Shown here: positions 4,970 through 28,012 of the stretch, one piece after another
Numbering within the stretch: position 1 is the stretch's first letter
How the letters are laid out: every line of letters begins with the position of its first letter
Assembly: GCA_010692645.1 (NCBI GenBank)
Contig: JAAHGS010000060.1
Span: 1-33,552, forward strand
Length of the DNA stretch: 33,552 nucleotides
From: Symploca sp. SIO2E9
GTDB lineage: Bacteria > Cyanobacteriota > Cyanobacteriia > Cyanobacteriales > Coleofasciculaceae
Direction: 5' to 3'
Made by a program: the position numbers and the translations under genes
Notes under the pieces: generated by a model
Told to the model about the DNA's origin: nothing
What the model saw: only the letters and a program-made list of their open reading frames with translations
The model's database searches: none

Positions 4970-5183
4970 GAATAGCTTAAAAGCTTATTTGATCAGGAGT
5001 CTGCCACCACCTCAACTCTTTATGAGAAGCATGAGAAGGGGACGCATTGTGGCTAATATCAATTTCTGATAATGGTTGCTATACATTAATCCCCGTGTCT
5101 CTTTGTCCCCGCGTCTCCGCGTCATCAGTATCTGTAGCAAACATAAATGAAATTGGCAATAAGCTCCCTAGTGCAAGGGAACA

Positions 5184-5359
5184 GATGAGTTTTTAGGTGA
5201 GATTTTAGATGAGGTTTATAGGGTTTGAGATGAGATTTTAGATGAGATGAGATTTTAGATGAGGTTTGAGATGAGGTTTCTAGGTTTTTAGATGAGGTTT
5301 GAGATGAGGTTTCTAGGTTTTTAGATGAGGTTTGAGATGAGATTTTAGATGAGGTTTAA
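5184..5359. repeat. AGATGAGGTTT-type tandem repeat array with a 33-bp unit
   Basis: The spacer upstream of the sigma-factor gene carries many copies of AGATGAG followed by GTTT or ATTT. The clearest higher-order unit is 33 bp, with two perfect tandem copies at 5258-5290 and 5291-5323 and a partial third from 5324. A further patch with the same words lies at 5488-5520, close to the gene. The remainder of 4725-5595 holds no convincing gene. Confidence 0.85.
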
Positions 5360-5480: not shown

Positions 5481-5595
5481 TTAGTAGGTTTTTAGATGAG
5501 TTTTTAGATGAGATTTATAGGTTGTTATAAATCCTGCAAAGAATAATAATTCTGATAGTGAATCAGGCATAATTTGATCTTGGATTCATAATTTT

Positions 5596-7596
5596 ATGCA
5601 ATCTAGTAACATCGGGAGCAATAGCGGCGCTACCTTAACTGGTGCCGCTCAAGGAGATATTGTCTCAGAATTTTGGCAGCAATGGCAGGAACAGAAAGAC
5701 AAGCTTTATCGCTGCTGTCTAAAGTTGATGAATTTCAACTCTACAGATGCAGAAGACGCCTTGTCTCAGGCGATGCTCAAGGCTTGGGAAAAGGTACAGA
5801 AATATGCTGGCAAAATCGATAACTTGAAGGCTTGGCTAGTGCAGTTGACTCGCAACCTCTGTATCGATATTATTCGCCAACGCTCTAGGGGAGCCGCAGG
5901 GGTAGAAAGTTTTGAATGGGTGGGGGCAACGGATAATGTCGATACCGCCAGTACGGTGGATAGTCCCGAGAAAGCATTGGAGAAAGAAGAGAAAGCAACA
6001 GTTATTAAGCATGCGATCGCATCTTTACCGGAACGGTTGCGCAATACTTTTAGATTACATTTTTATCAACAGCGTAGTCATACTGAAATCGCAGAAGAAC
6101 AAAGGATAACTTACGATAATGTCTGCAAGCGCATATCTTTGGCACGGAAACAGCTAAAAGAGAGGTTGAGGGGCTATTTCCAAGGAACGGATGGGGAAGT
6201 AGCTACGGTGGGTACTCCTCAGCGGCAAACCTCAGGGGCGACAGTAGAAAAGCCGAACAAAAGGGAGGAAGAGGAAGAAGCGTACGCAAATTGGAAAACT
6301 CCTGAAAGGACCTTACTCCAAGCACAATTAGCAACAGGTAGCGCAACGGTTTGTGGTGGAGAACCGCCAAAGAACAGTGACTCAGTGGAATTTGCGTACG
6401 CAACCAAAGATGGTTCAGCAGTTGACCAACAACATTTAGAAGCGGACGCTAACTTGAATCCTCCGGAAAAGACGGATGTCTCCCCAAAGAAGGAAGATGC
6501 TCGGGTTAGTAGGGAGCCTGCGCGATCGCCTTTGGCACCTATTGTTTTATCAAGTTCGTGGTTGAGCGCATCAAAACCTGAACGGTTGCGCAATACTTTT
6601 AGATTACATTTTTATCAACAGCGTAGTCATACTGAAATCGCCGAAGAACAAAGGATAACCTACGATAACGTTTGTAAGCGGATATCTTTGGCACGCAAAG
6701 AACTAAAAGAGAGGTTGAGGGGCTATTTCCAAGGAAGCGATGGGGTTGTAGCTACGGTGGGTACTCCTCAGCGGCAAACCTCAGGGGCGACAGGTGAAAA
6801 ACCGAACCAAAGAGAGCCAAATACAAAGGTAGCCAAAGACTCCAACATAGTCCCCAGAGAGAGTAAAGCTAAGGAGCTAAATTCTACAGGCGCGATCGCA
6901 GAAAATTCTACTCCTGATATAACTACTGTCGGCACCCCATTGGCACTAGGTATCGCTGTCCTAGAGAAAGCAGTAGCCACCAAATCCATTGACCACCATT
7001 GTGGGAGCGAGAAATCAGTAGGGGTATGCGACAGCCTAGAGCTGGCGCAGAATTCTTGTAGGTCAATCGTGGTTTCGTGCTTGAGCCGATTCGGCTTTTT
7101 ACCAGTACACTTGCGCAATAGTTTTAGATTACATTTTTATCAACAGCGTACTCATACAGAAATAGCCGCAGAACAAGGGATAACCTACGATAATGTCTGC
7201 AAGCGCATCTCTTCGGCACGGAAAGAATACAAAGAGAGGTTGAGGGGCTCAAATAAAAGCCAGAATAGTGCGATGCAAGATCAGACACAAGTTACTTCGC
7301 GTAAATCCTATGTGCTTCCTTTGCATATCTTCGAGTCCAATGATGATCAAATTGTTTTATTAAATAAAAGTTTTATAAAACGAAAGTCTGATGACCAAAG
7401 TTTTATAAAACAAAAGCAAGATACCTTTTGCGAGATTTTCCAAACGCCACTAATCAGTTCAGCTTTGTGCGGTTATTGTAATGCTGGGAGACCACTTGAA
7501 ATATCCAAACAAAACCTGTTCGCTTCCAGCTTGCAGGAAAACAGCGAGCTTGATATCCAAAGTCTCAACCCCACTATTTTTTACCTCTGCATTTAA
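5596..7596 (+). CDS. ECF-like sigma-70 factor with three sigma-4 domains
   Basis: A 666-residue protein that should bind core RNA polymerase and direct promoter choice. Residues about 37-98 form a sigma-2 domain (LYRCCLKLM, DAEDALSQAMLKAWE, IDNLKAWLVQLTRNLCIDII). A sigma-4 helix-turn-helix domain (LRNTFRLHFYQQRSHTEIAE, TYDNVCKRISLARK) follows at about 146-200. It is then repeated at about 329-383 and, more diverged, at about 504-555. ECF factors usually have about 180-200 residues and a single sigma-4. Linkers of roughly 120-130 residues rich in Pro, Glu, Ser and Thr separate the copies, and the first two copies also share the flank GTPQRQTSGAT. The ATG at 5596 is the first in frame. The last 46 codons overlap the convergent AidA-like gene, and the tail carries a small repeat (KSFIKRK / QSFIKQK). 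Function as a working sigma factor is likely; the role of the extra domains is unknown. Confidence 0.85.
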   Translation: MQSSNIGSNSGATLTGAAQGDIVSEFWQQWQEQKDKLYRCCLKLMNFNSTDAEDALSQAMLKAWEKVQKYAGKIDNLKAWLVQLTRNLCIDIIRQRSRGAAGVESFEWVGATDNVDTASTVDSPEKALEKEEKATVIKHAIASLPERLRNTFRLHFYQQRSHTEIAEEQRITYDNVCKRISLARKQLKERLRGYFQGTDGEVATVGTPQRQTSGATVEKPNKREEEEEAYANWKTPERTLLQAQLATGSATVCGGEPPKNSDSVEFAYATKDGSAVDQQHLEADANLNPPEKTDVSPKKEDARVSREPARSPLAPIVLSSSWLSASKPERLRNTFRLHFYQQRSHTEIAEEQRITYDNVCKRISLARKELKERLRGYFQGSDGVVATVGTPQRQTSGATGEKPNQREPNTKVAKDSNIVPRESKAKELNSTGAIAENSTPDITTVGTPLALGIAVLEKAVATKSIDHHCGSEKSVGVCDSLELAQNSCRSIVVSCLSRFGFLPVHLRNSFRLHFYQQRTHTEIAAEQGITYDNVCKRISSARKEYKERLRGSNKSQNSAMQDQTQVTSRKSYVLPLHIFESNDDQIVLLNKSFIKRKSDDQSFIKQKQDTFCEIFQTPLISSALCGYCNAGRPLEISKQNLFASSLQENSELDIQSLNPTIFYLCI

Positions 7597-8127
7597 ACTC
7601 ATAAAGTTTCTGTCAGCGGTTACTGGAGGCAACCCATCCGGTGAAGATGCATCTGGCATGACGGCACCAGATAAATTTTTATGAACTGGGTGAAAATCGC
7701 CAAAGACTTCATCGCCATCCCTGTGAGAGATACCGTAAACGATTGCAGCGCTACTGGAATTTGCATCAATCGAAGCGCATGAGAAAGAAACTACATCAGA
7801 GATATTTGCTTTTAATTCCAGATAGGGGGTACCTTGACCATCGATCACGTGCTGATAGTCGACCATCAAATACTGGTTTTCGACCTCGATTTCCGTCGGA
7901 GCCCACTTGTGTTGGCTGGGCTCGGGGTATTGTTCTTGGAGGTATTTTGTGTCAACGACTATATTTACGTAAATGGAACGATGCTGACAAACAAAACCAG
8001 TTAAAATAAGGGCAGCTAAACACCGTTGTTGCTCATCAGTTAGTTTACTAACCTCGTTACAGTAAAGGTCAACAACCGTCTGATCACATTGGAAGCAGTG
8101 TTCGATGTTATCAATTGTATTGCTCAT
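7459..8127 (-). CDS. AidA/PixA (inclusion-body) family protein, copy 1
   Basis: A 222-residue protein of the AidA/PixA inclusion-body family, whose members include Xenorhabdus PixA and the quorum-regulated AidA of Burkholderia and Ralstonia. Matching features are IYVNIVVDTKYLQEQYPEPS, QYLMVDYQHVIDGQGTPYL, the conserved AIVYGI, MPDASSPDGLPP and the C-terminal FGYFKWSPSITI. The first 52 residues before the conserved IYVNIVVDT are not obviously family sequence and contain four cysteines. It lies 147 bp downstream of a paralogue. Its 3' end overlaps the convergent sigma-factor gene by 138 bp. The biochemical activity of the family is not established. No good Shine-Dalgarno precedes the ATG at 8127, so the start is uncertain. 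Confidence 0.85.
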   Translation of the reverse strand: MSNTIDNIEHCFQCDQTVVDLYCNEVSKLTDEQQRCLAALILTGFVCQHRSIYVNIVVDTKYLQEQYPEPSQHKWAPTEIEVENQYLMVDYQHVIDGQGTPYLELKANISDVVSFSCASIDANSSSAAIVYGISHRDGDEVFGDFHPVHKNLSGAVMPDASSPDGLPPVTADRNFMSLNAEVKNSGVETLDIKLAVFLQAGSEQVLFGYFKWSPSITITAQS

Positions 8128-8274: not shown

Positions 8275-8829
8275 TTACCTCACAGCAAGCCGTAACCCGG
8301 CACCACCGGAGGTGATGGTAGGATCCCATTGGTAGTAACCATACAGCTCCTGCGAGCTACCATTTTGCTGGTAAAGAGCAAACCAGACCTTAAAGTTTTC
8401 TGTCCCAGAACCGAGAACGTCTGCGGTAAACACAGGGAAAGTCAGCTTGGTGGTGAGAGGAGGCAGTCCGTCAGGCTGATTCGAGTCAGGCATAACAGCG
8501 TTATCGAGGGTAAAAGGCGAATAACGGAACGGGCCAAAAACATTATCGCCCCCGAACTTGGGCATGCCGTATAGCAGCACAGCATCCGAGGAATTGGCCT
8601 GGATACATGTACCGTAGAAACGAACTGTATCGCCAGGATTAGCCTTGATGTGCAGATCAGCAGTAGCTTGATTGGCGTAAACGTGTTGGTAGTCGACGAT
8701 CATATATTGACTGTTATGGGCGATTCCCTTGGGATTATTCTTATCACTGTTGGGACTATAGTGATCTTTTACATAGTCTGTGTCGATCACGACAGACACG
8801 TAGATGATTTCGGGTGAAGCAAGAGTCAT
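8275..8829 (-). CDS. AidA/PixA (inclusion-body) family protein, copy 2
   Basis: A 184-residue protein from ATG 8829 and the more canonical of two tandem AidA/PixA paralogues. Residues include IYVSVVIDTDYVKDHYSPNS, QYMIVDYQHVYANQAT, LHIKANPGDTVRFYG, VLLYGMPKFGG, FALYQQNGSSQELYGYYQWDPTIT. Length and start fit the family. The frame stays open upstream to a TTG at 8988 that would overlap the preceding gene's stop (TTGA), adding 53 residues with no family resemblance. I prefer the ATG, although translational coupling from the TTG cannot be excluded. The gene lies directly after a PD-(D/E)XK-like gene in a five-gene minus-strand run. Copy 1 shares the QY(L/M)(M/I)VDYQHV core and the PDGLPP motif, indicating an old duplication. 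Confidence 0.88.
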   Translation of the reverse strand: MTLASPEIIYVSVVIDTDYVKDHYSPNSDKNNPKGIAHNSQYMIVDYQHVYANQATADLHIKANPGDTVRFYGTCIQANSSDAVLLYGMPKFGGDNVFGPFRYSPFTLDNAVMPDSNQPDGLPPLTTKLTFPVFTADVLGSGTENFKVWFALYQQNGSSQELYGYYQWDPTITSGGAGLRLAVR

Positions 8830-8984
8830 GTCTTTGCGTTTGTTATCGATTACGTAAAAAGAGACGCTCAAGGAAGCCAAACCCTGACAAAATAACCTTG
8901 TGTCGCTTAGGAAGCCATCGCCAACGCCGAAGTGAGAGAACAAGCGCTCGCCACGAAACCTGTTGAACAGAGCGTTATCTTTAC

Positions 8985-9599
8985 TCAATGCGATGTCATC
9001 GACTCATTAATACCGTAGGCTAAAATTCCCAAAATCTTATTGACATTGTTAAGAAAATGCTCTCCTAAATCGATAGCAATAACTTGCCCTTCTAACTTTA
9101 GAAACTTCCACCTATCCCCAGTCGTAACAGCCCCATAAATTTTGTTAATCTGGTTTTCTTCCCGTTCATTAAATAACCTTGCAGCCAACATTTCGGCTAC
9201 ACATTGCCCTAATCCAGCATTAATATCTTCTTTTTTTGCCTCTACTATCGTAATCACGGGGGCCTTGATCAATAACTGCTCTGGAGAACGACTGATCAGA
9301 AAATCACAAGTTCCATTTAATCCTTGGGTAGCATCAACAGTAAAATCTACACCAGAAAATAAACTAATAGGCTGCGGCAAATGCCTTTTTAACTCAATTA
9401 AAATAGGGGCAATAATCATTTCTGAGCGAGACTTTTCTGTATTAATAGCAAGAGCTAAAGGTAGATTGTAATCAAGGGTTTCTTGCAAAAAATGACTGCT
9501 CTTAAATTCTGGTGCCTCTGGAAAAATATCCACTTTTTCAGAAATGGTTAACCCAAAAACTTTTATAACTTTTGCCAAAGTAAAGTCACTGTATGCCAT
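8985..9599 (-). CDS. PD-(D/E)XK nuclease-like conserved protein 1
   Basis: A 204-residue protein of unassigned role. It carries a plausible PD-(D/E)XK core: Glu60 in the helix SRSEMII, Asp99 in GTCDFLI, then IVEAKKE with Glu120 and Lys122, and a following helix [10 protein letters not shown] with Gln132. The pattern resembles uncharacterised cyanobacterial restriction-endonuclease-like proteins. It sits between another ExK protein (49 bp upstream) and an AidA-like gene. The arrangement could mean a nuclease, or a fold used for other purposes. There is no methyltransferase or target-recognition subunit of a classical restriction system adjacent to it. The start ATG at 9599 follows a purine-rich GGTGGAAGGA stretch that works as a Shine-Dalgarno. 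Confidence 0.7.
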
Positions 9600-11966: not shown

Positions 11967-12362
11967 TTATTCTCCGACCATATTAGGATTAATCAAGGTA
12001 ATATCAAACTCGTCGATTAACTCTCGCTCTAGGTAATAGATAGCGCTTACTTGAGGAGCAAAGACAATCTCGTCTTTATCTTCGAGAATATGGGCTTTGA
12101 TTTTGCGACCATTAACCAAGAGTCCATTGCAACTGGGCTTACCTTGAAGGTCTCCATCAATAATTTGGTAATAGTAACTACCGTCCTCGTGCCTACCTTT
12201 TTCTAGAGTAGCTTGTCGGCGGGAGACAAATAGTGAAAACAGTTGTATGTCACAGCCTGGGCTTCTGCCGATGGAGTAGGTGGCATCCTTTAAGGTAAAT
12301 TGCCTGGAACCTTCATCGTCTTTAATTTTCAGTTTATGTGTTGGAACTGGTTGTACAACCAT
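11967..12362 (-). CDS. Small FHA-domain protein
   Basis: A 131-residue protein made almost entirely of one forkhead-associated (phosphothreonine-binding) domain. The signature elements are YSIGRSPGCDIQL, VSRRQATLEK and CNGLLVNGRKI, with the usual tail DEIVFA. The Ser-Arg-Arg-Gln variant replaces the common SRxH, but the GR and S-R residues that contact phosphate are kept. I place the start at ATG 12362 (MVVQPVPTHKLKIKD); the frame continues to 12416 with an unrelated hydrophobic leader. It is isolated from the kinase cluster by about 9 kb but could read marks made by that kinase. It appears to be a single-gene unit; the 12363-12701 spacer behind it shows no other gene. Confidence 0.85.
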   Translation of the reverse strand: MVVQPVPTHKLKIKDDEGSRQFTLKDATYSIGRSPGCDIQLFSLFVSRRQATLEKGRHEDGSYYYQIIDGDLQGKPSCNGLLVNGRKIKAHILEDKDEIVFAPQVSAIYYLERELIDEFDITLINPNMVGE

Positions 12363-12701
12363 AGTAAAATTGTGATATAACAAGCAATCGAGCAATAATA
12401 TAGAGTTTAGTGGCATTCAAACTGGCAGACTTCATTAACCAGTTGATTCAACTCTCAAAGATTGCACTCTTATAAGAAATTGTCAACTACGCTTTCCACA
12501 GATAAAAAAATCTTAAGACTTAGAAATTAACATTAGTTGCGCTTGTTCTTAGATGAGTGCTACTATCAGAATCCATTTGAACTTAAATTGCCTTAAAGCG
12601 GCAGTAGTTATCCTAATATGACGGTAACACAAACTGAGAGTTAAGTTCACTGCTTTTGAAACAACAAGCATGGTTAACCAGACTCATTACTTAATGGTTT
12701 T

Positions 12702-14023: not shown

Positions 14024-15406
14024 TCAACATGAACTACCCCGCCTCACTGCGTAGGACGGGGTTTCAAAAACCCTGTCCTCCGGAGAGGACTTACTGAGTT
14101 TTGAACGCTTCTTTTGCTGTAGTTGCTTCAAAGAACCCGTATCCTTACGGCTACGCTTCTTACAAGTAGAGCTAACAGCATCCACGTCGACGAGGGCTGT
14201 CCCATCCCCCGGTTGCTTATTTATGGCAACCTGATACATCACCAACGCTGAACCTTTGTCGCGTGCAATTTCAAAACCGCAAGCATCACAAATGTGATAA
14301 CGGCCAGATAGTGATGCCCAATGCTTGTGTACTTTTCCGCAGTTGGGACAACGTTGGGATGGTTTGACTTTTTTGGTATCAAGCACAAGAAGTAATCCAC
14401 CTTTTGCCTCAATTTTGTAGCCAATCATTTTATTGAGAGTGGACATCCCTACGTCTAGAATTGACTTGTTGAGTCCGGCTTTTTGCTTCTTACGCTTGCT
14501 TCCCTTTTTAGCTTTGCGGGTCATGTTTCTAACCCGCAGTTCTTCAGTAACGCCGATGTCATAACGACTTGCTATATCTGACGTTACCTTGTGCTGCCAA
14601 TCCTGACGTTGATTACTAACTTTTCGCTGTAATCTTGAAACCGTTTTAGAGGCTTTTTTCCATCTGTTTGAGGGTTTGGTCTTCTTTTTCCTGTTGGGCG
14701 CTATCTTACGCCTCATTTGCTTAGACTTGCGCTTAACTTCCTGCTCCTTATTACGCAAGAAGCGAGGGTTAGTTAGCTCAACATACTCTGACCCATCGTA
14801 AGTAGTAAGAGCAGTGCTTGTGCCTAAGTCGTAAGCAATAATTGATTCATATTTTAGGTCTGAAGTTGAATCATATTTAGCTTCAACAGTTGCCACTTCC
14901 ACAGTGAAAGACGCATACCATTGATATGAACTTGGGCGATAAACAATGGTTAAAGTTGTAGGATCTCCCCATTGTTTCGCCTTACCGCGCATTCTAATAG
15001 AAAGCCCTAAATCCCGGAGTTCTACCTTTCCATGTTTACCGTTGGTGTAGACCTTCCATCCGGCACTACCAGGGTAAGTCCAGCCGCTGTAATTGCGTAA
15101 TGACTTGAATTTTGGGTGTTTTCTCAAGCCTTTGAAAAATGCTTGGAAGGCTGAATCAACTCGCTTTACGGTTGCCTGTAAAGCTTGAGAGCCTAAGACG
15201 GCAAATTCAGGATTATCTTTCTTGAATTGGGGTAATTTGTTTTGCTGGTCAAAGTATTTTAGATTTTTTCGGTCTGTTTCCCATGCATGTTTGCGACCAG
15301 CTAGACAAGCATTATAGATGTACTGATGCAAACGTCTGGCTTTGAATAATTGCCGCTGTTGACTTTGGTTAGGGTACAGTCGAAATGTTTGTCTTCTAGT
15401 CGCCAC
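14024..15406 (-). CDS. tnpB: TnpB, RNA-guided endonuclease of an IS200/IS605-type element
   Basis: A 460-residue TnpB. It has an N-terminal OrfB_IS605 region (QTFRLYPNQSQQRQL), a RuvC-like nuclease with Asp193 (AYDLGTS), Glu288 (VTEELRV) and Asp383 (IARDKGSA), and a zinc ribbon CPNCG (353-357) / CDACG (373-377). All three catalytic acids are present, so it may be active. The usual DRDxNAA near the third acid is replaced by ARDKGSALVM. The start is GTG 15406, backed by an unusually complete Shine-Dalgarno, AAGGAGGTGAT. The last codons read through the right-end stem, as expected where the guide (omega) RNA derives from the gene's 3' end. It is one of the few genes here with a full-length ribosome binding site, which fits a mobile origin. 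Confidence 0.92.
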   Translation of the reverse strand: MATRRQTFRLYPNQSQQRQLFKARRLHQYIYNACLAGRKHAWETDRKNLKYFDQQNKLPQFKKDNPEFAVLGSQALQATVKRVDSAFQAFFKGLRKHPKFKSLRNYSGWTYPGSAGWKVYTNGKHGKVELRDLGLSIRMRGKAKQWGDPTTLTIVYRPSSYQWYASFTVEVATVEAKYDSTSDLKYESIIAYDLGTSTALTTYDGSEYVELTNPRFLRNKEQEVKRKSKQMRRKIAPNRKKKTKPSNRWKKASKTVSRLQRKVSNQRQDWQHKVTSDIASRYDIGVTEELRVRNMTRKAKKGSKRKKQKAGLNKSILDVGMSTLNKMIGYKIEAKGGLLLVLDTKKVKPSQRCPNCGKVHKHWASLSGRYHICDACGFEIARDKGSALVMYQVAINKQPGDGTALVDVDAVSSTCKKRSRKDTGSLKQLQQKKRSKLSKSSPEDRVFETPSYAVRRGSSC

Positions 15407-15541: not shown

Positions 15542-16021
15542 TTAAAAATCTTCCAACAAGGGACTCAGGCGATTTAGCAGAGGGTCTGCATCTGGGGTAG
15601 CATTAGGAGTCAGTGTTTGTGCCTCTGGTTCCAACTGTGGAGGCTGTTGATGAGGTTCGAGGTACTGTTGTTGATTAACGATCGCACTTAGTTGAGATAT
15701 TTGTTGAGTTAGTAGATGCATCTGGCGTTCTATAGCTTCTAAGCGACTCGATTCTTTATTAAACAAACGTCGCTCAAACTCAGCAAGTTGACGCTGCACT
15801 TCGGTGGCTTGTTGCTCCATTGCCTCCTTTCTAGGGTTAGGCTTTAAAGATTCAGGAACGCATAAAAATTGCCACAGTGCCTCCTTGCAGAGAGCGCTAA
15901 AATTTCTGTGCTGTTGTTTACTCAATTCAGTTTCCACAACCTCTAACAGGCATTGATCAGCAACCTCTTGATCAAAGGTAACTGATTTATTTGTCTTGTT
16001 CCTGTTGAACCAAAAGAACAT
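15542..16021 (-). CDS. ParR-like partner: ribbon-helix-helix plus coiled coil
   Basis: A 159-residue protein encoded directly after the ParM-like gene, with start and stop sharing one base (TGATG at 16019-16023), so translation is probably coupled. Residues about 13-55 (KSVTFDQEVADQCLLEVVETEL, then NFSALCKEALWQFL) look like a strand followed by two helices, the ribbon-helix-helix layout used by ParR-type centromere-binding adaptors. Residues 65-120 are Gln/Glu-rich with a coiled-coil pattern, and the tail is Pro/Gln-rich. I do not recognise a named family. By position and layout it is probably the DNA-binding adaptor of the actin-like protein. The IS element begins 6 bp past its stop. Confidence 0.65.
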   Translation of the reverse strand: MFFWFNRNKTNKSVTFDQEVADQCLLEVVETELSKQQHRNFSALCKEALWQFLCVPESLKPNPRKEAMEQQATEVQRQLAEFERRLFNKESSRLEAIERQMHLLTQQISQLSAIVNQQQYLEPHQQPPQLEPEAQTLTPNATPDADPLLNRLSPLLEDF

Positions 16022-17202
16022 CAGTTTCCAGTTTTGGCAGTGCGATTGGCTAATGCTCTCAACATAGCCTCTCCATAAATATACTGCCCCAAGGCATTAG
16101 CTTGCCGGGAAGGTGCAGCTAAGTGAGCATTAATCTTGGCATCTTTGAGCAGATGTTGAATCTCTTCCCAAAAGAACTCTCCTCCTCCTCCTGTAAGAAT
16201 CACGTCAGTCACTCGCTCTGGCAGCCAGGCTAAGACACGGCTACAGATTTCGCGAGAAAAACTTTCTTTTAAATTAGGTAGAAAATCGTCTAGATTAGTC
16301 GGTTGGGTTAAACCCTTGGGGCGGTAGAAACGCTCACCCCTTGGTTTATGAACTGCTGAAATCAGAGATAGGGATTGACTGTTGGCTCCCTCAATCTGAG
16401 AGGCTACTTGTTCATAAAACTGGCTCATGGCAAAGGCTTCGCTTTTAGAAGCTCCTCGTGCAAACCGGAAGCTATCAACCATCAGACAATCTGTGGTTTG
16501 ATGTCCAATATCTACAATTGCCACTGATAACTTCGTAAAGTCTGGAGTCACTCCCTTGTTAGCTTGAGCTTCACTCCAGAGCAGAGAGCCGTAACCTTCT
16601 GGCATTACCCAAACCTTGGTAATGTTAATTGAGATGGGATTACCCCGATAGTTCATAAAATGAGGACCGCTAAGCAGGCTGATAATTTGTTGTTTTTCTC
16701 GCTCAAACTGCTCTTGGGAAAGGTAAGGTAAGCCTAATACAACTGCCACATCGTCCTTGATCCCGAAGTATCCTGCACAGGCTAAGACTTTGGCTAGTGC
16801 ATCTTCAACTTTAGATTGACCTAAACCCAGATTTGCTCCAAAGTCTGCTGCTAATTGACCAAAAGCATAGCCAATGCCTCGATACTCTAGCCACATATCC
16901 AATAAGGGTTCGGTAGCACGAGCTTCAAAAATACCTCCGCGCGCTTGTTCCATCGATAAATGCTTGACATTGGCAGGCATGAGAATCACATTACTAGGTT
17001 CACGCGTGACACAAGTTTTTGTGGCAGTTCGACCTAAATCCACGCTAATAATTGATTTCATAGAATTGGTGCCGAGATTGCTATTGACTGAATTTGTTGC
17101 CGATTTAATCTTATTCATCGGGGTAGCAGCATTCATCGGGGTAGCAGCATTCATCGGGGTAGCAGCATTAATTGGTGTGGCAGCTGACTTTTGACCTGTC
17201 AT
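16021..17202 (-). CDS. ParM/StbA-like actin-family ATPase
   Basis: A 393-residue actin-like protein of the kind that forms filaments for DNA segregation. Phosphate-1 is ISVDLGRTATKTCV (about 51-64), phosphate-2 is VAIVDIGHQTTDCLMVDS, and the adenosine motif is VILTGGGGEFFWEEI. The actin core starts at Met48. Before it is an extra segment with the repeated hexapeptide AATPMN, encoded by 18-bp tandem repeats. The start at 17202 is supported by AGGAG at 17208-17212 with 5-base spacing; the internal Met48 (17061) lacks such a site, so the repeated leader is probably translated. Whether it segregates a plasmid, a chromosome region or something else cannot be told here. No plasmid replication gene is nearby. 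Confidence 0.85.
   Translation of the reverse strand: MTGQKSAATPINAATPMNAATPMNAATPMNKIKSATNSVNSNLGTNSMKSIISVDLGRTATKTCVTREPSNVILMPANVKHLSMEQARGGIFEARATEPLLDMWLEYRGIGYAFGQLAADFGANLGLGQSKVEDALAKVLACAGYFGIKDDVAVVLGLPYLSQEQFEREKQQIISLLSGPHFMNYRGNPISINITKVWVMPEGYGSLLWSEAQANKGVTPDFTKLSVAIVDIGHQTTDCLMVDSFRFARGASKSEAFAMSQFYEQVASQIEGANSQSLSLISAVHKPRGERFYRPKGLTQPTNLDDFLPNLKESFSREICSRVLAWLPERVTDVILTGGGGEFFWEEIQHLLKDAKINAHLAAPSRQANALGQYIYGEAMLRALANRTAKTGN
17113..17184. repeat. 18-bp tandem repeats at the 5' end of the ParM-like gene
   Basis: Three perfect copies of ATTCATCGGGGTAGCAGC at 17113-17130, 17131-17148 and 17149-17166, plus one degenerate copy at 17167-17184. In frame they encode AATPMN repeats. 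Their position next to a partition gene resembles the iterons of a parC-like centromere. Confidence 0.9.
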
Positions 17203-21032: not shown

Positions 21033-23129
21033 TTAAAGCTCAACCCCGGCTATTTCAAATGCTTGTCTAATTGCACCAGCTAATTCCGATTGGTACTGCT
21101 CCCCGTAAAACTCAGATGCTTGACGATAGGCAGACAACAGGGAACGAAAATTCTCAACTTGACCATCTACTGTTCTGATGTTGAGTAAAACCCAACCTAA
21201 GTTGTGGTATACTTCAGCATAGTCTGGTTTTAACTGAAGAGCTCTTTCCAGATAGGAGCGTGCTTGCGCCCATTGTCCTAGTTTTCCTGATAAAGTGCCT
21301 AGACGGAATAAAGCAAAGGCGTCAGAGGGGAATTGCTGAATGTAGGCTTTGTAGGCTTGGATAGCACCTTGAGAATTGTGCAAGTGTTCCTGAGTAATTC
21401 CTTGATTGAGGAATACCCAGGCAGGAATTTGTACTTTCTGGCTGGCTTGCTCAAAATCTACCAATGCCTCAGCCCATAACCCTTGCAAAGCTTGCTTCCA
21501 AGCTTTCAATCCCCAAGCAACTGCACTATTGGGTACTTGAGTTGTAAACTCTAAAATGCGCCTCTCCACATCAGTAGATTGCTTAGTAACAACAGCCTTT
21601 TCCAAGGCAATAATTAAATAGGGATATACCCATTTTTGCAGTTCTTGGGATTCCCTAGACTGACGCTGTTTTGACTTAAACAGTGCCTGGGTAGCAGCAC
21701 GAATTGCTTGTTTCCATTGCTGTTGATTAAAATGAATCCAAGCTTGTAACCCTAGAGCAAAGGTACAGTTACTATCAATTTCTAGTGCTTTGGAAACAGC
21801 AGACTCTGCCTGTTGCCAATTACCAAGCTTGCCCCATGCCCAAGCTAGATTAGCTTGTATCCAAACTTCTTGGGGAGCTAAGTTAACAGCTTGTTGCAAT
21901 TGTTTTACTGCTGTTGACCAATTTGATTTACGGCAGTTGACTAATCCTAAAACCCCATAGCTCCTGCCATCATTTGGTTCCAGTTGAATGGCTTTTTGCG
22001 CTGCCACTTCAGCCCTCAAGTCATTAAGATGCATCTGCACTAGGGCTAATTCAACCGCAGCTTCACTATTATTCGGCTCATTAGTTAGACATTTTTCATA
22101 GGCTTGAACCGCGTCTGCTAACTTTCCTTGCTTAACTAACTCCCACGCTTTCCTTTGACTGGGAGAAACAAACTTCCCTTTGAGGGCATCAATAAGTTCC
22201 TCGGCTGTCTGAAATCGCTCCTCAACTTTCATTCTCATTCCAGTTAAGATTACTTGCTCAGTTTGCGGTGTAATTTGAGGAACTAACTGTCGCGGTGGAA
22301 CTAAAGTTTCTGATGTAGCCCTATCTGTGGCTTGAGCTGGTAATTCACCAGTAAGTAACTCATACATTGAGGCACATAGAGCATATATATCCGTAGCTGG
22401 CCAACGTTTACTCCGGTAACTGTACTGCTCAAGAGGAGCGTATCCTGGTGTCAAAGTTGCACTCATTTCATGGGTTTGACCAGCAATGAATTCTTTGGTA
22501 GCACCAAAATCAATCAATACGGCTCGATCTTGGTTATCAATTAGAATATTATCAGGTTTAATATCTCTATGTAATAATTTATTAGAGTGGACAGCCTTTA
22601 AAGCTTCTGCCACTTGGATAAAATAGGGTTTAAGCTTCTTTTCAGAAAGAACACCTTCTTCTTGTAAGATGTTGTATAAGGAATTTCCAGAGATAAACTC
22701 CATTACTAAATAGGCAGTGTTATTCTCCTCAAACCACTCATAAACTTTAGCAATGTTAGGGTGGGCACATTTTTGTAAGTAACTGGCTTCCAACTGAAAT
22801 TTGTAGAGTTGTCGTTGTCGATCAATAGGGGCAACAGAAGGGGGCCAAGTGATGGTTTTGCCCATCCTAGCTGCTTTTTCAGGCCAGAGTTCTTTGATAG
22901 CAACATTGGCAGAGTTAGGCAGGTAAATTCCTTTGTAGGTAATTCCAAAGCCACCTTCTCCCATGACTTTTTCTACCCGATACTGACTTTGTCTCAGCAG
23001 TGTGCCAGCAGGCAAATGGTAGGCTGATGAACTAACAGTCTCTTCAAAATCAAGAGGAGCACCACAACTAGCACAGTAGTTGTTACTTTCAGTATTGATA
23101 TGACCGCATACTATACAGGTAATAGACAT
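21033..23129 (-). CDS. Ser/Thr protein kinase with zinc ribbon and TPR tail
   Basis: A 698-residue Hanks-type kinase. A zinc ribbon (Cys5, Cys8, Cys19, Cys22) is followed by a complete kinase domain (about 45-315): GEGGFGITYKG glycine loop, Lys79 in VAIKELWP, catalytic HRDIKPDN (Asp189, Asn194), and DFG (207-209). All catalytic residues are present. From about 330 to 690 there are tandem TPR units (VYHNLGWVLLN and similar), a protein-binding superhelix. There is no transmembrane segment, so it should be cytosolic. An 18-bp palindrome spans its start codon. It is last in the signalling cluster and separated from PP2C by 387 bp, so it probably has its own promoter. Expected partners are the FHA and vWA proteins next door. 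Confidence 0.93.
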   Translation of the reverse strand: MSITCIVCGHINTESNNYCASCGAPLDFEETVSSSAYHLPAGTLLRQSQYRVEKVMGEGGFGITYKGIYLPNSANVAIKELWPEKAARMGKTITWPPSVAPIDRQRQLYKFQLEASYLQKCAHPNIAKVYEWFEENNTAYLVMEFISGNSLYNILQEEGVLSEKKLKPYFIQVAEALKAVHSNKLLHRDIKPDNILIDNQDRAVLIDFGATKEFIAGQTHEMSATLTPGYAPLEQYSYRSKRWPATDIYALCASMYELLTGELPAQATDRATSETLVPPRQLVPQITPQTEQVILTGMRMKVEERFQTAEELIDALKGKFVSPSQRKAWELVKQGKLADAVQAYEKCLTNEPNNSEAAVELALVQMHLNDLRAEVAAQKAIQLEPNDGRSYGVLGLVNCRKSNWSTAVKQLQQAVNLAPQEVWIQANLAWAWGKLGNWQQAESAVSKALEIDSNCTFALGLQAWIHFNQQQWKQAIRAATQALFKSKQRQSRESQELQKWVYPYLIIALEKAVVTKQSTDVERRILEFTTQVPNSAVAWGLKAWKQALQGLWAEALVDFEQASQKVQIPAWVFLNQGITQEHLHNSQGAIQAYKAYIQQFPSDAFALFRLGTLSGKLGQWAQARSYLERALQLKPDYAEVYHNLGWVLLNIRTVDGQVENFRSLLSAYRQASEFYGEQYQSELAGAIRQAFEIAGVEL

Positions 23130-25455: not shown

Positions 25456-26067
25456 TCAGGGACTTTGGAAGAGAAAACGAATTTTTGCGATCGCAATTTC
25501 ATCTCCAGGAGTTATAGTTTCTGGTAGAGTAATTTTGGCATTGAAGCGAGTGTTACCAGCAGGTTTGATAAAAACACCGTTAGTAGAACCAAGATCTTTT
25601 ATTTTCCATTGCCCTCCCTCTCGATAAATTTCTGCGTGGTGGCGCGAAACTGTCTCGTTACCGGAAAAAGCCTCTAAGTCAATATCGACAGGTCCCATAT
25701 CTGGATCAAAGATACCGATAAGATTGCTATCATCTAGCGGGAATTCTGAGGTAGGAGCATCAGCTTGCTTAGAAATGAGTCTGGCTGTTACAGCAGCGGT
25801 AGTAACAGGAGGAGTTGGAGATATGGGGGGCTGGGGTGGATTTGGGGTGATTACTGGAGGCGGCTCAGGAGGCTGGATTGGGGTTGGCTCAGGAGGTTCC
25901 GGTGTTACTTGGGTAATTACTGGAGGCGGCTCAGGAGGTTGGATTTGAGTGTTAGCTTGAGATTCTATAGTTACTTGGGTTTGGGATGTTAATTCAGAGC
26001 CGCAAGCATCACAAAACTCTGTTCCTTCTGGGTTTTTATCATAGCCACAAGTTTGACAGATAATCAT
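25456..26067 (-). CDS. FHA-domain protein with zinc ribbon and proline-rich linker
   Basis: A 203-residue cytosolic adaptor. A zinc ribbon (CQTCGYDKNPEGTEFCDACG, residues 4-23) is followed by a Pro/Glu linker with repeated PPEPPPVIT units (about 40-90). A canonical FHA domain (about 105-200) closes it, with VSRHHAEIYRE and KDLGSTNGVFIK. The SRHH and STNG residues that bind phosphothreonine are intact, so it should recognise phosphorylated partners. The zinc ribbon resembles that of the kinase, suggesting a shared docking partner. The start is fixed by AAGGAG at 26076-26081. The linker is encoded by direct repeats (ATTACTGGAGGCGGCTCAGG near 25849 and 25917). It lies between the vWA and PP2C genes in the same direction. 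Confidence 0.92.
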   Translation of the reverse strand: MIICQTCGYDKNPEGTEFCDACGSELTSQTQVTIESQANTQIQPPEPPPVITQVTPEPPEPTPIQPPEPPPVITPNPPQPPISPTPPVTTAAVTARLISKQADAPTSEFPLDDSNLIGIFDPDMGPVDIDLEAFSGNETVSRHHAEIYREGGQWKIKDLGSTNGVFIKPAGNTRFNAKITLPETITPGDEIAIAKIRFLFQSP

Positions 26068-26201: not shown

Positions 26202-27596
26202 TTAGGTTCCTGATAGTTTACGAATTTGCTCTTCTGAAAGTTCACCCTCAATTTCTCCACTCATTTTGATAGTCTTTCCTCTGGAACCCATTTTGATGGT
26301 TTTACGGGTTCCAGAAGAAATTTTGCGAGTTTTGCGTAACTCGTTTTGAGCTTCATTGAGAGATTCAAGCATGGCTTGGTTGCCAATCTTTACTGTCATA
26401 CGACGTGCAGTTTCTAAGATTTTTCCTGCTTGTTCGGGATTACTATCTGCAAGTCTGGTGGCTTCAGTTACTAGCTGAGAAATGTTGCACTGTTGTACAT
26501 AACCCATTACTTCTGGATCAACTTGTGCCGCTCCGCTTTGACCAGCAACAAATTGAACTACGACATTCTGAGGTGGTAGCTCGCCGCGTCGATTTTGTCC
26601 TGGAATATCATAGGTTAAACCAAGTTGAGCAATTCGTACACGGGAGCTGGCATGACTATCTATAGTGAATTCCAGAATAAAAACTGTTTCATCATTGGCA
26701 ACGGCGGTGCCAATGAGATAGGGTTCTTGAATAAGGGAGAATTCCGCTTGATCAGGATAAGCACGAACAACACGGGTGAGTTTTACCCCCTTAACTGTCT
26801 TGGCAGTTAGAGTGAGATTATTAATAACTTCCTGTTGTGCTTGGCTAAATTCTTTAAACAGGATTTGAGGTAAATCACTAATGGCAACATCAGTACCTGT
26901 AGCATGTCCTGAAACAATATGGTGAAGATGACCAGCAGTATTATCGCTTAGGTTGATCAGTAAATCTTCATTGAATTCACCAACCCCCAAGGCTGTAATC
27001 GGAATACCCTTATCCGCAAACTGTTTCGCTAGTTCTCTACATTCTTCCTCATCAAAGGTTGCACCATCAGTAAAGATTAAAGCACGGCGACTAGTCATAC
27101 TTTGACCAGAAAGCAGATTCAATGTCTGCTCCATCCCTTTTCCCATGCAGGTGCCACCGCTGTGGTTACGGAGTTTCTCAATTCCTGCCTCTAATTGACT
27201 GGTTTGAGTTGCTGGTGTTAGTCCGATAATAGTTGATGCTCGGTCGTCAAATTGGATAATTGCAACGCGATCGCTTGCACTGAGTTGGTTAGAGCCGACT
27301 AAATTTAACAGAGACTCAATAACAATATCGATTTTAGTTTTACCACCTGTCACTTCCTCAAATTCTTTTCCATCCTGTGTGTACACTTTGCCTGTCGGTT
27401 TTGTGTCGCCTTTGACTACTTCATACATCGAACCACTGGTATCGATCACAAAGGCAAAACTAGTTGAGGGTAACTCAATCGCCACTTCTTTTGTTGGTCG
27501 TAATTTCAACATCACAAATAGTTTCTGCTCTGGTGTATCAGCAGGCAGAAATTCACGATGAGGAGTGATTGCTACATATAAAGGTGGGTTACTCAT
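26202..27596 (-). CDS. Cytosolic vWA-domain protein with Thr-rich repeated tail
   Basis: A 464-residue protein with a von Willebrand A domain in its first half. The MIDAS metal site is intact: FVIDTSGSMYEV (DxSxS), SGGTCMGKGM (Thr) and IFTDGATFD (Asp). A beta-rich region and a helical segment follow. The last 45 residues contain a short basic repeat, TRKTIKM then GKTIKM, preceded by TRKISSGT. These are attractive candidate kinase sites that the neighbouring FHA protein could bind. No signal peptide or membrane segment. I place the start at ATG 27596 (MSNPPLYVAITPHREF); the longer frame to 27692 overlaps the upstream gene and lacks family sequence. In vWA/PP2C/kinase triads the vWA protein is the usual target or scaffold. 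Confidence 0.9.
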   Translation of the reverse strand: MSNPPLYVAITPHREFLPADTPEQKLFVMLKLRPTKEVAIELPSTSFAFVIDTSGSMYEVVKGDTKPTGKVYTQDGKEFEEVTGGKTKIDIVIESLLNLVGSNQLSASDRVAIIQFDDRASTIIGLTPATQTSQLEAGIEKLRNHSGGTCMGKGMEQTLNLLSGQSMTSRRALIFTDGATFDEEECRELAKQFADKGIPITALGVGEFNEDLLINLSDNTAGHLHHIVSGHATGTDVAISDLPQILFKEFSQAQQEVINNLTLTAKTVKGVKLTRVVRAYPDQAEFSLIQEPYLIGTAVANDETVFILEFTIDSHASSRVRIAQLGLTYDIPGQNRRGELPPQNVVVQFVAGQSGAAQVDPEVMGYVQQCNISQLVTEATRLADSNPEQAGKILETARRMTVKIGNQAMLESLNEAQNELRKTRKISSGTRKTIKMGSRGKTIKMSGEIEGELSEEQIRKLSGT

Positions 27597-27628
27597 TCTA
27601 ATATCCTGGTACGACCAATGCTCTAGTT

Positions 27629-28012
27629 TCAATGAAAATTCAAAGGCGGTAACATTCCTGAGGTAGGTTCTATACCTGACAAATCTGGGCAAACTAGATT
27701 CGGTATTTCCTGATTACCTAGTTCCTGCAATTGACTAATATCTGAGGCAATTATCAAGGGCAAATCCAGAGTAATGGCACTGTCTCGATAACCTTCTTCT
27801 ATATCTTGGATCCAGGTTTTGATGATTTTGTCGAGGTTATAGCTATTAATTTTGCATAGGCTTTGCTCTTGAAACGATGCTCTCAGCTTTTCTCGCTCTG
27901 AGAGAGTGAAAAATAAAGCTGGATTATCTTCCTGGCTACTGTCTAAAGTGACGGAATACCTGTATTCATCTTCTATATCCTTTATATGGAGAGTGAACGT
28001 ATATCTTACCAT
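27629..28012 (-). CDS. Small conserved-looking protein of unknown function
   Basis: A 127-residue protein from ATG 28012 (MVRYTFTLHIKDIEDEYRYSVTLDS). The frame stays open upstream to 28081 through CAGGAGTCAGGAG repeats, which is unlikely to be coding. It is acidic, with no membrane segment. It has two similar DIE(D/E)xYR segments, IKDIEDEYRYSV and IQDIEEGYRDSA, about 60 residues apart, hinting at an internal duplication. I recognise no family. It ends 32 bp before the cytosolic vWA start and shares its orientation, so it is probably part of the signalling cluster, perhaps a small partner of the vWA protein. Confidence 0.65.
   Translation of the reverse strand: MVRYTFTLHIKDIEDEYRYSVTLDSSQEDNPALFFTLSEREKLRASFQEQSLCKINSYNLDKIIKTWIQDIEEGYRDSAITLDLPLIIASDISQLQELGNQEIPNLVCPDLSGIEPTSGMLPPLNFH

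What the first reader, a model, noticed from the sequence alone, without database searches (positions are those of the whole stretch)
5596..7596. A sigma factor with three sigma-4 DNA-binding domains
One sigma-2 domain is followed by three copies of the sigma-4 helix-turn-helix region (starts near residues 146, 329 and 504), with long disordered linkers. Normal sigma factors have a single sigma-4. Several domains could bind several -35 elements, change promoter spacing, or bind anti-sigma factors. Seen in sequence: all three copies keep the LRN(T/S)FRLHFYQQR(S/T)HTEIA core and TYDNVCKRIS.
Basis: partly seen in the sequence, partly recalled or inferred. Interest (0 to 1): 0.8.

Follow-up and report, generated by a model that had tools for sequence, protein, structure and literature searches.

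The report
Sigma factor with three sigma-4 domains
A filamentous cyanobacterium carries a gene-switch protein (an ECF sigma factor) whose DNA-reading domain has been copied twice, and its gene, like many relatives, starts next to an array of one short repeated DNA word that the extra domains may read.

Summary
In detail: ORF 5596-7596 (+, 666 aa) has one sigma-2 and three sigma-4 domains on flexible linkers. It is neither isolated nor an obvious assembly error: the same genome has another three-sigma-4 paralogue and one with two, and a separately assembled congener (Symploca sp. SIO3C6) has a two-sigma-4 gene with the same 127-aa linker. The duplicated unit is sigma-4 plus the C-terminal extension seen in single-sigma-4 paralogues. 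Copy 2 looks as constrained as copy 1 (dN/dS 0.08 vs 0.12, few changes), copy 3 less (0.38). Five linkers stay open and indel-free despite 230 changes, though broken copies also exist. Second copies in other genera look relaxed. New here: tandem 12-bp TTTTANATGAG arrays precede many family genes and genes for small secreted-looking proteins and enzymes in 11 of 18 chosen genomes (reversed control: none), a candidate regulon whose word may be the -35 element. Against a simple link: single-sigma-4 genes also have arrays, and multi-sigma-4 genes of other genera lack them. Best reading: an autoregulated ECF factor whose tethered extra sigma-4 domains add avidity at repeated -35-like sites. Binding is untested. 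New variant of a known kind.

The parts
5596..7596 (+). ECF-type sigma factor gene, 666 aa: one sigma-2, three sigma-4
5695..5889 (+). sigma-2 domain (Sigma70_r2, residues 34-98)
6028..6171 (+). sigma-4 copy 1 (48-aa core, residues 145-192)
   Evidence: dN/dS from consensus 0.12
6172..6576 (+). linker 1, 135 aa; first 34 aa like the family linker, the rest has no other match in the own genome
6577..6720 (+). sigma-4 copy 2 (residues 328-375), 47 of 48 aa identical to copy 1
   Evidence: dN/dS from consensus 0.08
6721..7101 (+). linker 2, 127 aa; same length without indel as four other linkers of this clade; homologous to the C-terminal extension of single-sigma-4 paralogues
7102..7245 (+). sigma-4 copy 3 (residues 503-550), less constrained
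7246..7593 (+). C-terminal tail, not homologous to the repeat unit; last part antisense to a PixA-family gene; probably read-through
6015..6267 (+). DNA repeat unit copy 1
6564..6816 (+). DNA repeat unit copy 2 (91%)
7089..7341 (+). DNA repeat unit copy 3 (63% over the whole reference; similarity to other copies ends near 7249)
5183..5358 (+). distal array of TTTTAGATGAG-type units (TRF periods 12, 33, 45, and 17 in a part)
5488..5516 (+). proximal array of two units, ending 79 nt before the ATG
5507..5528 (+). conserved gene-proximal element GATGAGNTTTATAGGTTGTTAT; its 5 exact sites in the genome all precede family sigma genes

Best explanation
An extracytoplasmic-function (ECF) sigma factor whose 3' half (sigma-4 plus a ~127-aa flexible C-terminal extension) was tandemly duplicated, giving sigma2-sigma4-linker-sigma4-linker-sigma4. 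SHOWN by sequence: the duplicated unit and its occurrence in paralogues and a congener; changes in the extra sigma-4 copies of this clade are mostly at third codon positions, while linker residues drift but length and frame are kept in five linkers; arrays of a 12-bp word (TTTTANATGAG) precede many genes of this family and a set of other genes. INFERRED: the extra copies are in use; by the usual ECF rule of autoregulation the repeated word is the -35-type element that sigma-4 reads; one sigma-4 sits in the normal place on the RNA polymerase flap and the gene-proximal element, and the others, tethered by long linkers, bind neighbouring copies of the word and raise occupancy of array promoters, including the factor's own. 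Likely targets are secreted or surface-acting proteins.
For: Three sigma-4 stretches above threshold. Paralogues C83 (3 copies) and C90 (2, then a second frame with 2 more, one truncated), and congener G001:C268 (2; contig length equals Symploca sp. SIO3C6 JAAHHJ010000008). Window sigma-4 copies against each other: dN/dS 0.02, 0.29, 0.20; linkers 0.71-1.01 over ten pairs, the differing linker 1 left out. Six extra copies: 50 of 79 changes at third codon positions, P 6e-8 by a test that treats changes as independent. Five linkers: 230 changes from consensus, 0 stops, 0 indels; neutral simulation expects 9.3 stops; counting all eight 127-type linkers, five of them open, P is about 0.005, or 0.1 at the most lenient rate. 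Linker profile matches the C-terminal extension of single-sigma-4 paralogues (E 7e-20, 6e-8, 4e-4). Motif TTTWAGATGAGNTTT: 33 sites in 7.75 Mb (control 0 and 1), 28 of them in 7 clusters upstream of family ORFs, 5 in two clusters elsewhere, one before a lipase gene. Double unit: 72 sites in 11 of 18 chosen genomes, control 0 in all 18. In G007 both the sigma gene and the secreted-looking protein gene after it have arrays. The second residue of Y(D/Q/N)NV in the recognition helix tracks the variable array letter: D with G in 6 of 6 genes, Q/N with C/T in 7 of 8; Fisher 0.0047, kinship ignored.
Against: Arrays are not tied to sigma-4 number: genes with one full sigma-4 (L044, L043_1361, L053, L065, L070, L071, L073, L074, L095, L104) have 4-8 ATGAG words upstream, while multi-sigma-4 genes L049, L054, L059, L066 and L090-L092 have none or one (L049 has lost its 5' end; L060 lies at a contig edge). 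Five of the 18 genomes have a family gene but no array. The single motif is not specific outside the own family: in f2 genomes the control counts equal or exceed it. Window copy 3 is weakly constrained (5 of 12 changes at third positions). The broken downstream copy of C83 gives dN/dS 0.28-0.47 against intact ones, overlapping the 0.02-0.39 range among intact copies, so dN/dS separates them poorly. The five linkers were taken from open frames; two further ones are broken. Second copies in other genera give copy1-copy2 dN/dS 0.26-1.28 in seven genes, compatible with decay. A -10 element is weak: CTAA at +18-22 in 6 of 46 stretches, shuffled mean 1.3, a test chosen after looking at the same data. 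The letter/residue match has one exception and shares ancestry.
Confidence: 0.42

Rival explanations
1. By-product of tandem 3'-end duplication: the gene family is prone to partial tandem duplication, and the extra sigma-4 copies are tolerated C-terminal passengers kept similar by gene conversion.
For: Broken further copies follow the C83 and C90 genes; whole-gene or partial-sigma-2 duplications occur in L057, L060, L090, L091; several gains or losses on the tree; second copies in other genera look relaxed; window copies 1 and 2 share private residues, suggesting conversion; the frame test is only moderate once broken linkers are counted.
Against: Third-position excess in the extra copies of this clade; copy 2 dN/dS 0.08; within-gene dS of copies 1 and 2 (0.38) is not below the between-paralogue core dS (0.25-0.35), so the copies are not simply recent.
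Confidence: 0.3
2. The extra sigma-4 domains act as decoys or brakes: they bind the RNA polymerase flap, the first sigma-4 or an unseen anti-sigma factor, and set a threshold for activity.
For: C-terminal extensions of ECF factors are often regulatory (PMC8999054, passages), and anti-sigma factors are seen bound to ECF sigma factors or their region 4 in solved structures (titles of 3hug, 5wuq).
Against: No anti-sigma family among the 7 window neighbours scanned (neighbours of the other paralogues were scanned only in part); all copies keep the recognition helix unchanged, which decoys for protein partners would not need.
Confidence: 0.15
3. The ATGAG arrays are read by another DNA-binding protein, or are a passive repeat that travels with the genes; sigma-4 copy number has nothing to do with them.
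For: Arrays occur with single-sigma-4 genes and are absent from several multi-sigma-4 genes; in two loci the array lies between a divergent integrase ORF (Pfam in L116, by eye in L119) and another gene; one array is open as a 7-aa repeat ORF (L119).
Against: The 11 genomes with double-unit arrays all have a family sigma gene, and the two of the 18 without a family match (G006, G008) have none; in six of nine own-genome clusters the last unit ends 58-79 nt before the ATG in the same orientation (distances taken by hand); letter/helix match.
Confidence: 0.25
4. Assembly artefact of one contig.
For: The source is a draft of 383 contigs.
Against: Copies differ (91% and 63%); the same unit with the same 127-aa linker stands in other contigs and in another assembly.
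Confidence: 0.02

Closest known systems
ECF (group 4) sigma-70 factors, e.g. SigW (5wuq) and E. coli sigma-E (2h27)
   Same: sigma-2 plus sigma-4 without sigma-3; phmmer to SigW 9.5e-11; copy 3 fold matches 2h27, TM 0.84
   Different: Those have one sigma-4; here three on long linkers, with another recognition helix (TYDNVCKR against PVGTVKTR in SigW)
ECF groups with C-terminal extensions (ECF41 SnoaL, ECF42 TPR, CorE-type; PMC8999054, passages)
   Same: a long segment after sigma-4
   Different: no SnoaL or TPR Pfam hit in the window protein; it carries further sigma-4 copies instead
Cyanobacterial sigma-70 clan F (r2*r4_2) of Gevin et al. 2024, PMC11119718
   Same: same set of essential domains; the paper provides for 'non-canonical' families with duplicated essential domains (section 7 read)
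   Different: in the section and passages I read, A.5 (a second r3) is the duplicated pattern spelled out; the supplementary tables were not readable, so an r2*r4_2*r4_2 pattern may be listed there
TAACTGA direct repeats upstream of ORFs in Beggiatoaceae and cyanobacteria, PMC4679880
   Same: short direct repeats upstream of many genes
   Different: a different, 7-nt word, proposed there as a post-transcriptional site (abstract and outline only)

Membership tests
ECF sigma factor (sigma-70 group 4) | sigma-2 followed closely by sigma-4, no sigma-1 or sigma-3 | tested here: met
   Pfam r2 34-98 and r4_2 137-187, no r1 or r3 among the 15 families listed; TIGR02937 134.8 bits against cut-off 42.9, though the whole-protein score includes three stretches
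ECF sigma factor (sigma-70 group 4) | one sigma-4 domain | tested here: not met
   three sigma-4 stretches
ECF sigma factor (sigma-70 group 4) | cognate anti-sigma factor nearby | tested here: inconclusive
   no anti-sigma family in the 7 window neighbours scanned; review passages describe ECF groups without one
ECF sigma factor (sigma-70 group 4) | autoregulated promoter shared with targets (recalled rule) | tested here: inconclusive
   shared array upstream of sigma genes and other genes; no transcription data
ECF41/ECF42-type with folded C-terminal domain | SnoaL or TPR extension | tested here: not met
   no such Pfam hit in the window protein at E up to 0.1
Functional RNA polymerase sigma subunit | binds core RNAP and initiates transcription | not testable with these tools
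   needs in vitro transcription
Cyanobacterial clan F (r2*r4_2), PMC11119718 | essential domains r2 and r4_2 as the core set | tested here: inconclusive
   Sigma70_r2 and Sigma70_r4_2 are above the gathering score, but the overlapping Sigma70_r4 is too, and the paper's own assignment procedure was not run; duplication would make it non-canonical

The most novel reading that the evidence does not exclude
A polyvalent sigma factor: one polypeptide with several sigma-4 domains reads promoters that carry an array of tandem -35 elements, the protein domain and its DNA site having been amplified side by side, with a one-residue/one-base match (D-G, Q/N-C/T) between recognition helix and array word.
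Probability: 0.31. Interest if true: 0.87.

Novelty: new variant of a known kind. Interest (0 to 1): 0.7.

Why it matters
Sigma factors are treated as having one -35 reader per RNA polymerase. A selected protein with two or three tethered readers, next to promoters built from iterated words, would mean that initiation can be tuned by avidity within the sigma subunit itself. It also gives a ready-made natural series (one, two and three sigma-4 copies; one to about fourteen words) to test how sigma-4/-35 contacts set promoter strength, and it proposes a regulon for an uncharacterised ECF family in large cyanobacterial genomes.

Tried and rejected
Assembly artefact: rejected. Linkers as decayed sigma-2: linker DNA against the gene cores gave only matches of 9-20 nt, best E 0.029; in L090 and L091 (another family) partial sigma-2 does remain, so those look like separate events. 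Codon-model omega from IQ-TREE: my script's search for the value failed and the report heads printed did not show it, so Nei-Gojobori and codon-position counts were used. Sigma-4 number versus array length: suggestive in the own genome, rejected as a general rule. A fixed -10 box: weak. TIGR02985 scores above its cut-off (134.8 vs 126.4), but the whole-protein score includes three stretches, so I do not use it for membership. Reverse-transcriptase-like neighbours (component 8) as cause of the duplication: not followed. Literature: nine paper searches ran; in the titles and abstract starts listed (lists capped) I saw no sigma factor with repeated sigma-4 domains and no ATGAG arrays; most subscription journals are not in that library.

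Full report
Observation. The ORF at 5596-7596 (+) is as described: 666 aa, one sigma-2 and three sigma-4 domains. In the AlphaFold2 model of the whole protein (4 rows, mean pLDDT 47.8) copy 1 has four helices at block pLDDT 84-93, copy 2 three helices (core 73-83), copy 3 helices at 40-66. Copy 3 modelled with its relatives (7 rows) has four helices and mean pLDDT 78.8; its closest solved structure by fold is sigma-E region 4 on -35 DNA (2h27, TM 0.84, E 0.026; no hit reached 0.001). Linkers are polar (61-68% D,E,K,R,S,T,P,G,N,Q) and mostly below pLDDT 50.

Relatives. The own genome holds 22 matches to the protein at 0.001. Copies per ORF: C341 (window) 3; C83 3; C90 2, then a second ORF of 231 aa with 2 more, one truncated; C366 (two genes), C330, C362, C157 and C57 one each. 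Further copies downstream of C83 contain stops. The congener G001, two of whose contigs have the lengths of Symploca sp. SIO3C6 records, has a gene with 2 copies in C268 (its 5' end is replaced) and single-copy genes. Of 97 genomes searched (the own one included) 38 have a match at 1e-10; of 388 in the order 98 match the sigma-4 at 1e-8, with a capped list of matches. From these I fetched loci, favouring long ORFs, and compared 60 genes that have both domains: 49 have one sigma-4, 9 two, 2 three (at 50 bits or more). Well-supported branches force at least seven changes (gains or losses) of the two-copy label. In L090 and L091 the duplicated part includes a piece of sigma-2; in L092 a sigma-4 plus a sigma-4 fragment is repeated.

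What was duplicated. A profile of five 127-aa linkers matches the C-terminal extension of single-sigma-4 paralogues: G001 C190 7e-20, C366 6e-8, C330 4e-4. So the unit is sigma-4 plus extension, the 3' half of the gene. Linker 1 of the window gene (135 aa) is of this type only in its first 34 residues; the rest has no other match in the own genome, and I left this linker out of the linker statistics (with it, pairwise dN/dS is 0.37-0.95).

Selection. Nei-Gojobori dN/dS between window sigma-4 copies: 1-2 0.02 (9 synonymous, 1 non-synonymous change), 1-3 0.29, 2-3 0.20. From the consensus of ten cores: C341.1 0.12, C341.2 0.08, C341.3 0.38, C83.1 0.14, C83.2 0.23, C83.3 0.08, C90a.1 0.24, C90a.2 0.27, S8.1 0.08, S8.2 0.27, each on 7-16 changes. 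Third positions take 24 of 35 changes in first copies, 50 of 79 in six extra copies, 92 of 230 in linkers, and 5 of 12 in window copy 3. Five linkers have dN/dS 0.71-1.01 but the same length and no stop; a neutral simulation from their consensus expects 9.3 stops and none of 5000 runs was stop-free. These five were taken from open frames: of eight 127-type linkers between successive sigma-4 copies in this genus two are broken and one has a deletion (my count). Allowing for that, five or more stop-free of eight has P about 0.005 at the mean rate and 0.1 at the most lenient. A broken copy downstream of C83 gives 0.28-0.47 against intact ones, overlapping intact pairs (0.02-0.39, leaving out the two copies of the second C90 frame). 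Copy1-copy2 values in seven genes of other genera are 0.26-1.28. Gene conversion between window copies 1 and 2 is likely (shared private residues) and would colour these figures. I read the whole as: copy 2 is probably in use, copy 3 uncertain, and outside this genus second copies may be decaying.

The arrays. Upstream of the window gene lie 14 GATGAG words (TRF periods 12, 33 and 45). TTTWAGATGAGNTTT occurs 33 times in the 7.75-Mb genome (reversed control 0 and 1): C341 7, C83 6, C90 5, C330 4, C366 3 and 1, C33 2 (before an ORF with sigma-4 only), C23 4, C324 1. GATGAGNTTTATNGGTTNTTAT has 5 exact sites, all before family genes; with up to two mismatches there are 13 sites, control 2. In 26 other genomes the single motif matches in 13, but in the f2 genomes the control is as frequent or more so. 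In G001 arrays precede a 115-aa protein with a signal-peptide-like start, a 138-aa ORF, a flavin amine oxidase and a cut-off sigma gene. The doubled 12-nt unit with free letters occurs 72 times in 11 of 18 genomes that I chose, control zero in all 18; the letter inside the word is mostly lineage-specific: G in the own genus, T in g2 and f2, C or T in g7. Five of the 18 have a family gene and no such array. Genes following arrays include small proteins with signal-peptide-like starts (L128, L130, L132, L137; judged by eye), H_lectin-like proteins (L129 E 1e-4, L138 E 0.0096, both below Pfam's cut-off), a haem peroxidase (L134), an amidohydrolase (L141) and a response regulator (L143); for L127, L131, L133, L139, L140 and L142 my script found no gene or only a short ORF. 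In G007 the sigma gene and the gene after it each have an array. The array letter follows the second residue of Y(D/Q/N)NV: D with G in 6 of 6 genes, Q or N with C or T in 7 of 8, the exception being L043_1361 in the own genome (Fisher 0.0047, kinship ignored).

Mechanism. ECF factors commonly switch on their own gene (recalled), so a word shared by the sigma genes and a small set of other genes is a natural candidate for their -35 element, and tethered extra sigma-4 domains with unchanged recognition helices are natural extra readers. That step is inference. Against a strict pairing, single-sigma-4 genes also have arrays and multi-sigma-4 genes of other genera lack them. A consistent -10 box was not established.

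Known work. Nine searches of the paper library listed no report of repeated sigma-4 domains (titles and abstract starts seen). Gevin et al. 2024 (PMC11119718; abstract, outline, section 7 and passages) sort 4193 cyanobacterial sigma-70 proteins into 59 domain patterns and provide for duplicated domains; the text I saw spells out a doubled r3 (A.5); the supplement could not be read, so the bare architecture may be tabulated there. A review of non-canonical ECF factors (PMC8999054, passages) describes C-terminal extensions of other kinds.

Verdict. The architecture is a new variant of a known kind; joint use of several sigma-4 domains is plausible but untested.

Noticed in passing
L119:1584-3197 (+); similar ORF at L116:4520-6199 (-): A ResT/TelK telomere resolvase (PF16684, E 1.6e-42 in L119; the L116 ORF looks alike by eye) sits near an ATGAG array and an integrase ORF in two genomes: a hint of linear replicons or a prophage.
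   Followed up: partly
L043:4850-7147 (+): A YcaO cyclodehydratase (PF02624, E 8.7e-105) lies directly upstream of the single-sigma-4 paralogue in C366; a similar-looking ORF lies about 1 kb from an array in G013 (L124).
   Followed up: no
window 16021-17202 (-), repeats 17113-17184: ParM/MreB-like actin gene (ALP_N) whose N-terminal part holds four 18-nt tandem repeats; a TnpB-like gene (NF040570) lies at 14024-15406.
   Followed up: no
window 7459-8127 and 8275-8988 (-): Two neighbouring PixA inclusion-body-family genes; the first overlaps the tail of the sigma gene antisense by 138 nt.
   Followed up: partly
window 8985-9599 (-): ORF without Pfam hit whose BLASTP single-linkage cluster has members near family sigma genes in four other loci (L043, L048, L052, L053, component 10).
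   Followed up: no
L041, L045, L050, L057, L060, L061: ORFs of one cluster, some reading like reverse transcriptases, lie within a few kb of family sigma genes in six loci (component 8; nature judged by eye).
   Followed up: no
L055, L056, L059, upstream of the sigma genes: A different repeated word, about CCGACTTTTCCGACT, stands upstream of these sigma genes, which lack ATGAG arrays.
   Followed up: no
L119:3573-3881 (+): The ATGAG array is itself open as a 7-residue repeat (LDEVYRF), so a coding role of some arrays is not excluded.
   Followed up: partly
L060:2753-4675 (-) and L057:3268-4806 (-): In-frame fusion of two sigma genes, and a C-terminal second sigma-2 fragment: the family duplicates in more than one way.
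   Followed up: partly
window 11967-12416, 21033-23129, 25456-26067, 26202-27692 (-): FHA, protein-kinase/TPR, FHA and VWA domain proteins spread over the window.
   Followed up: no
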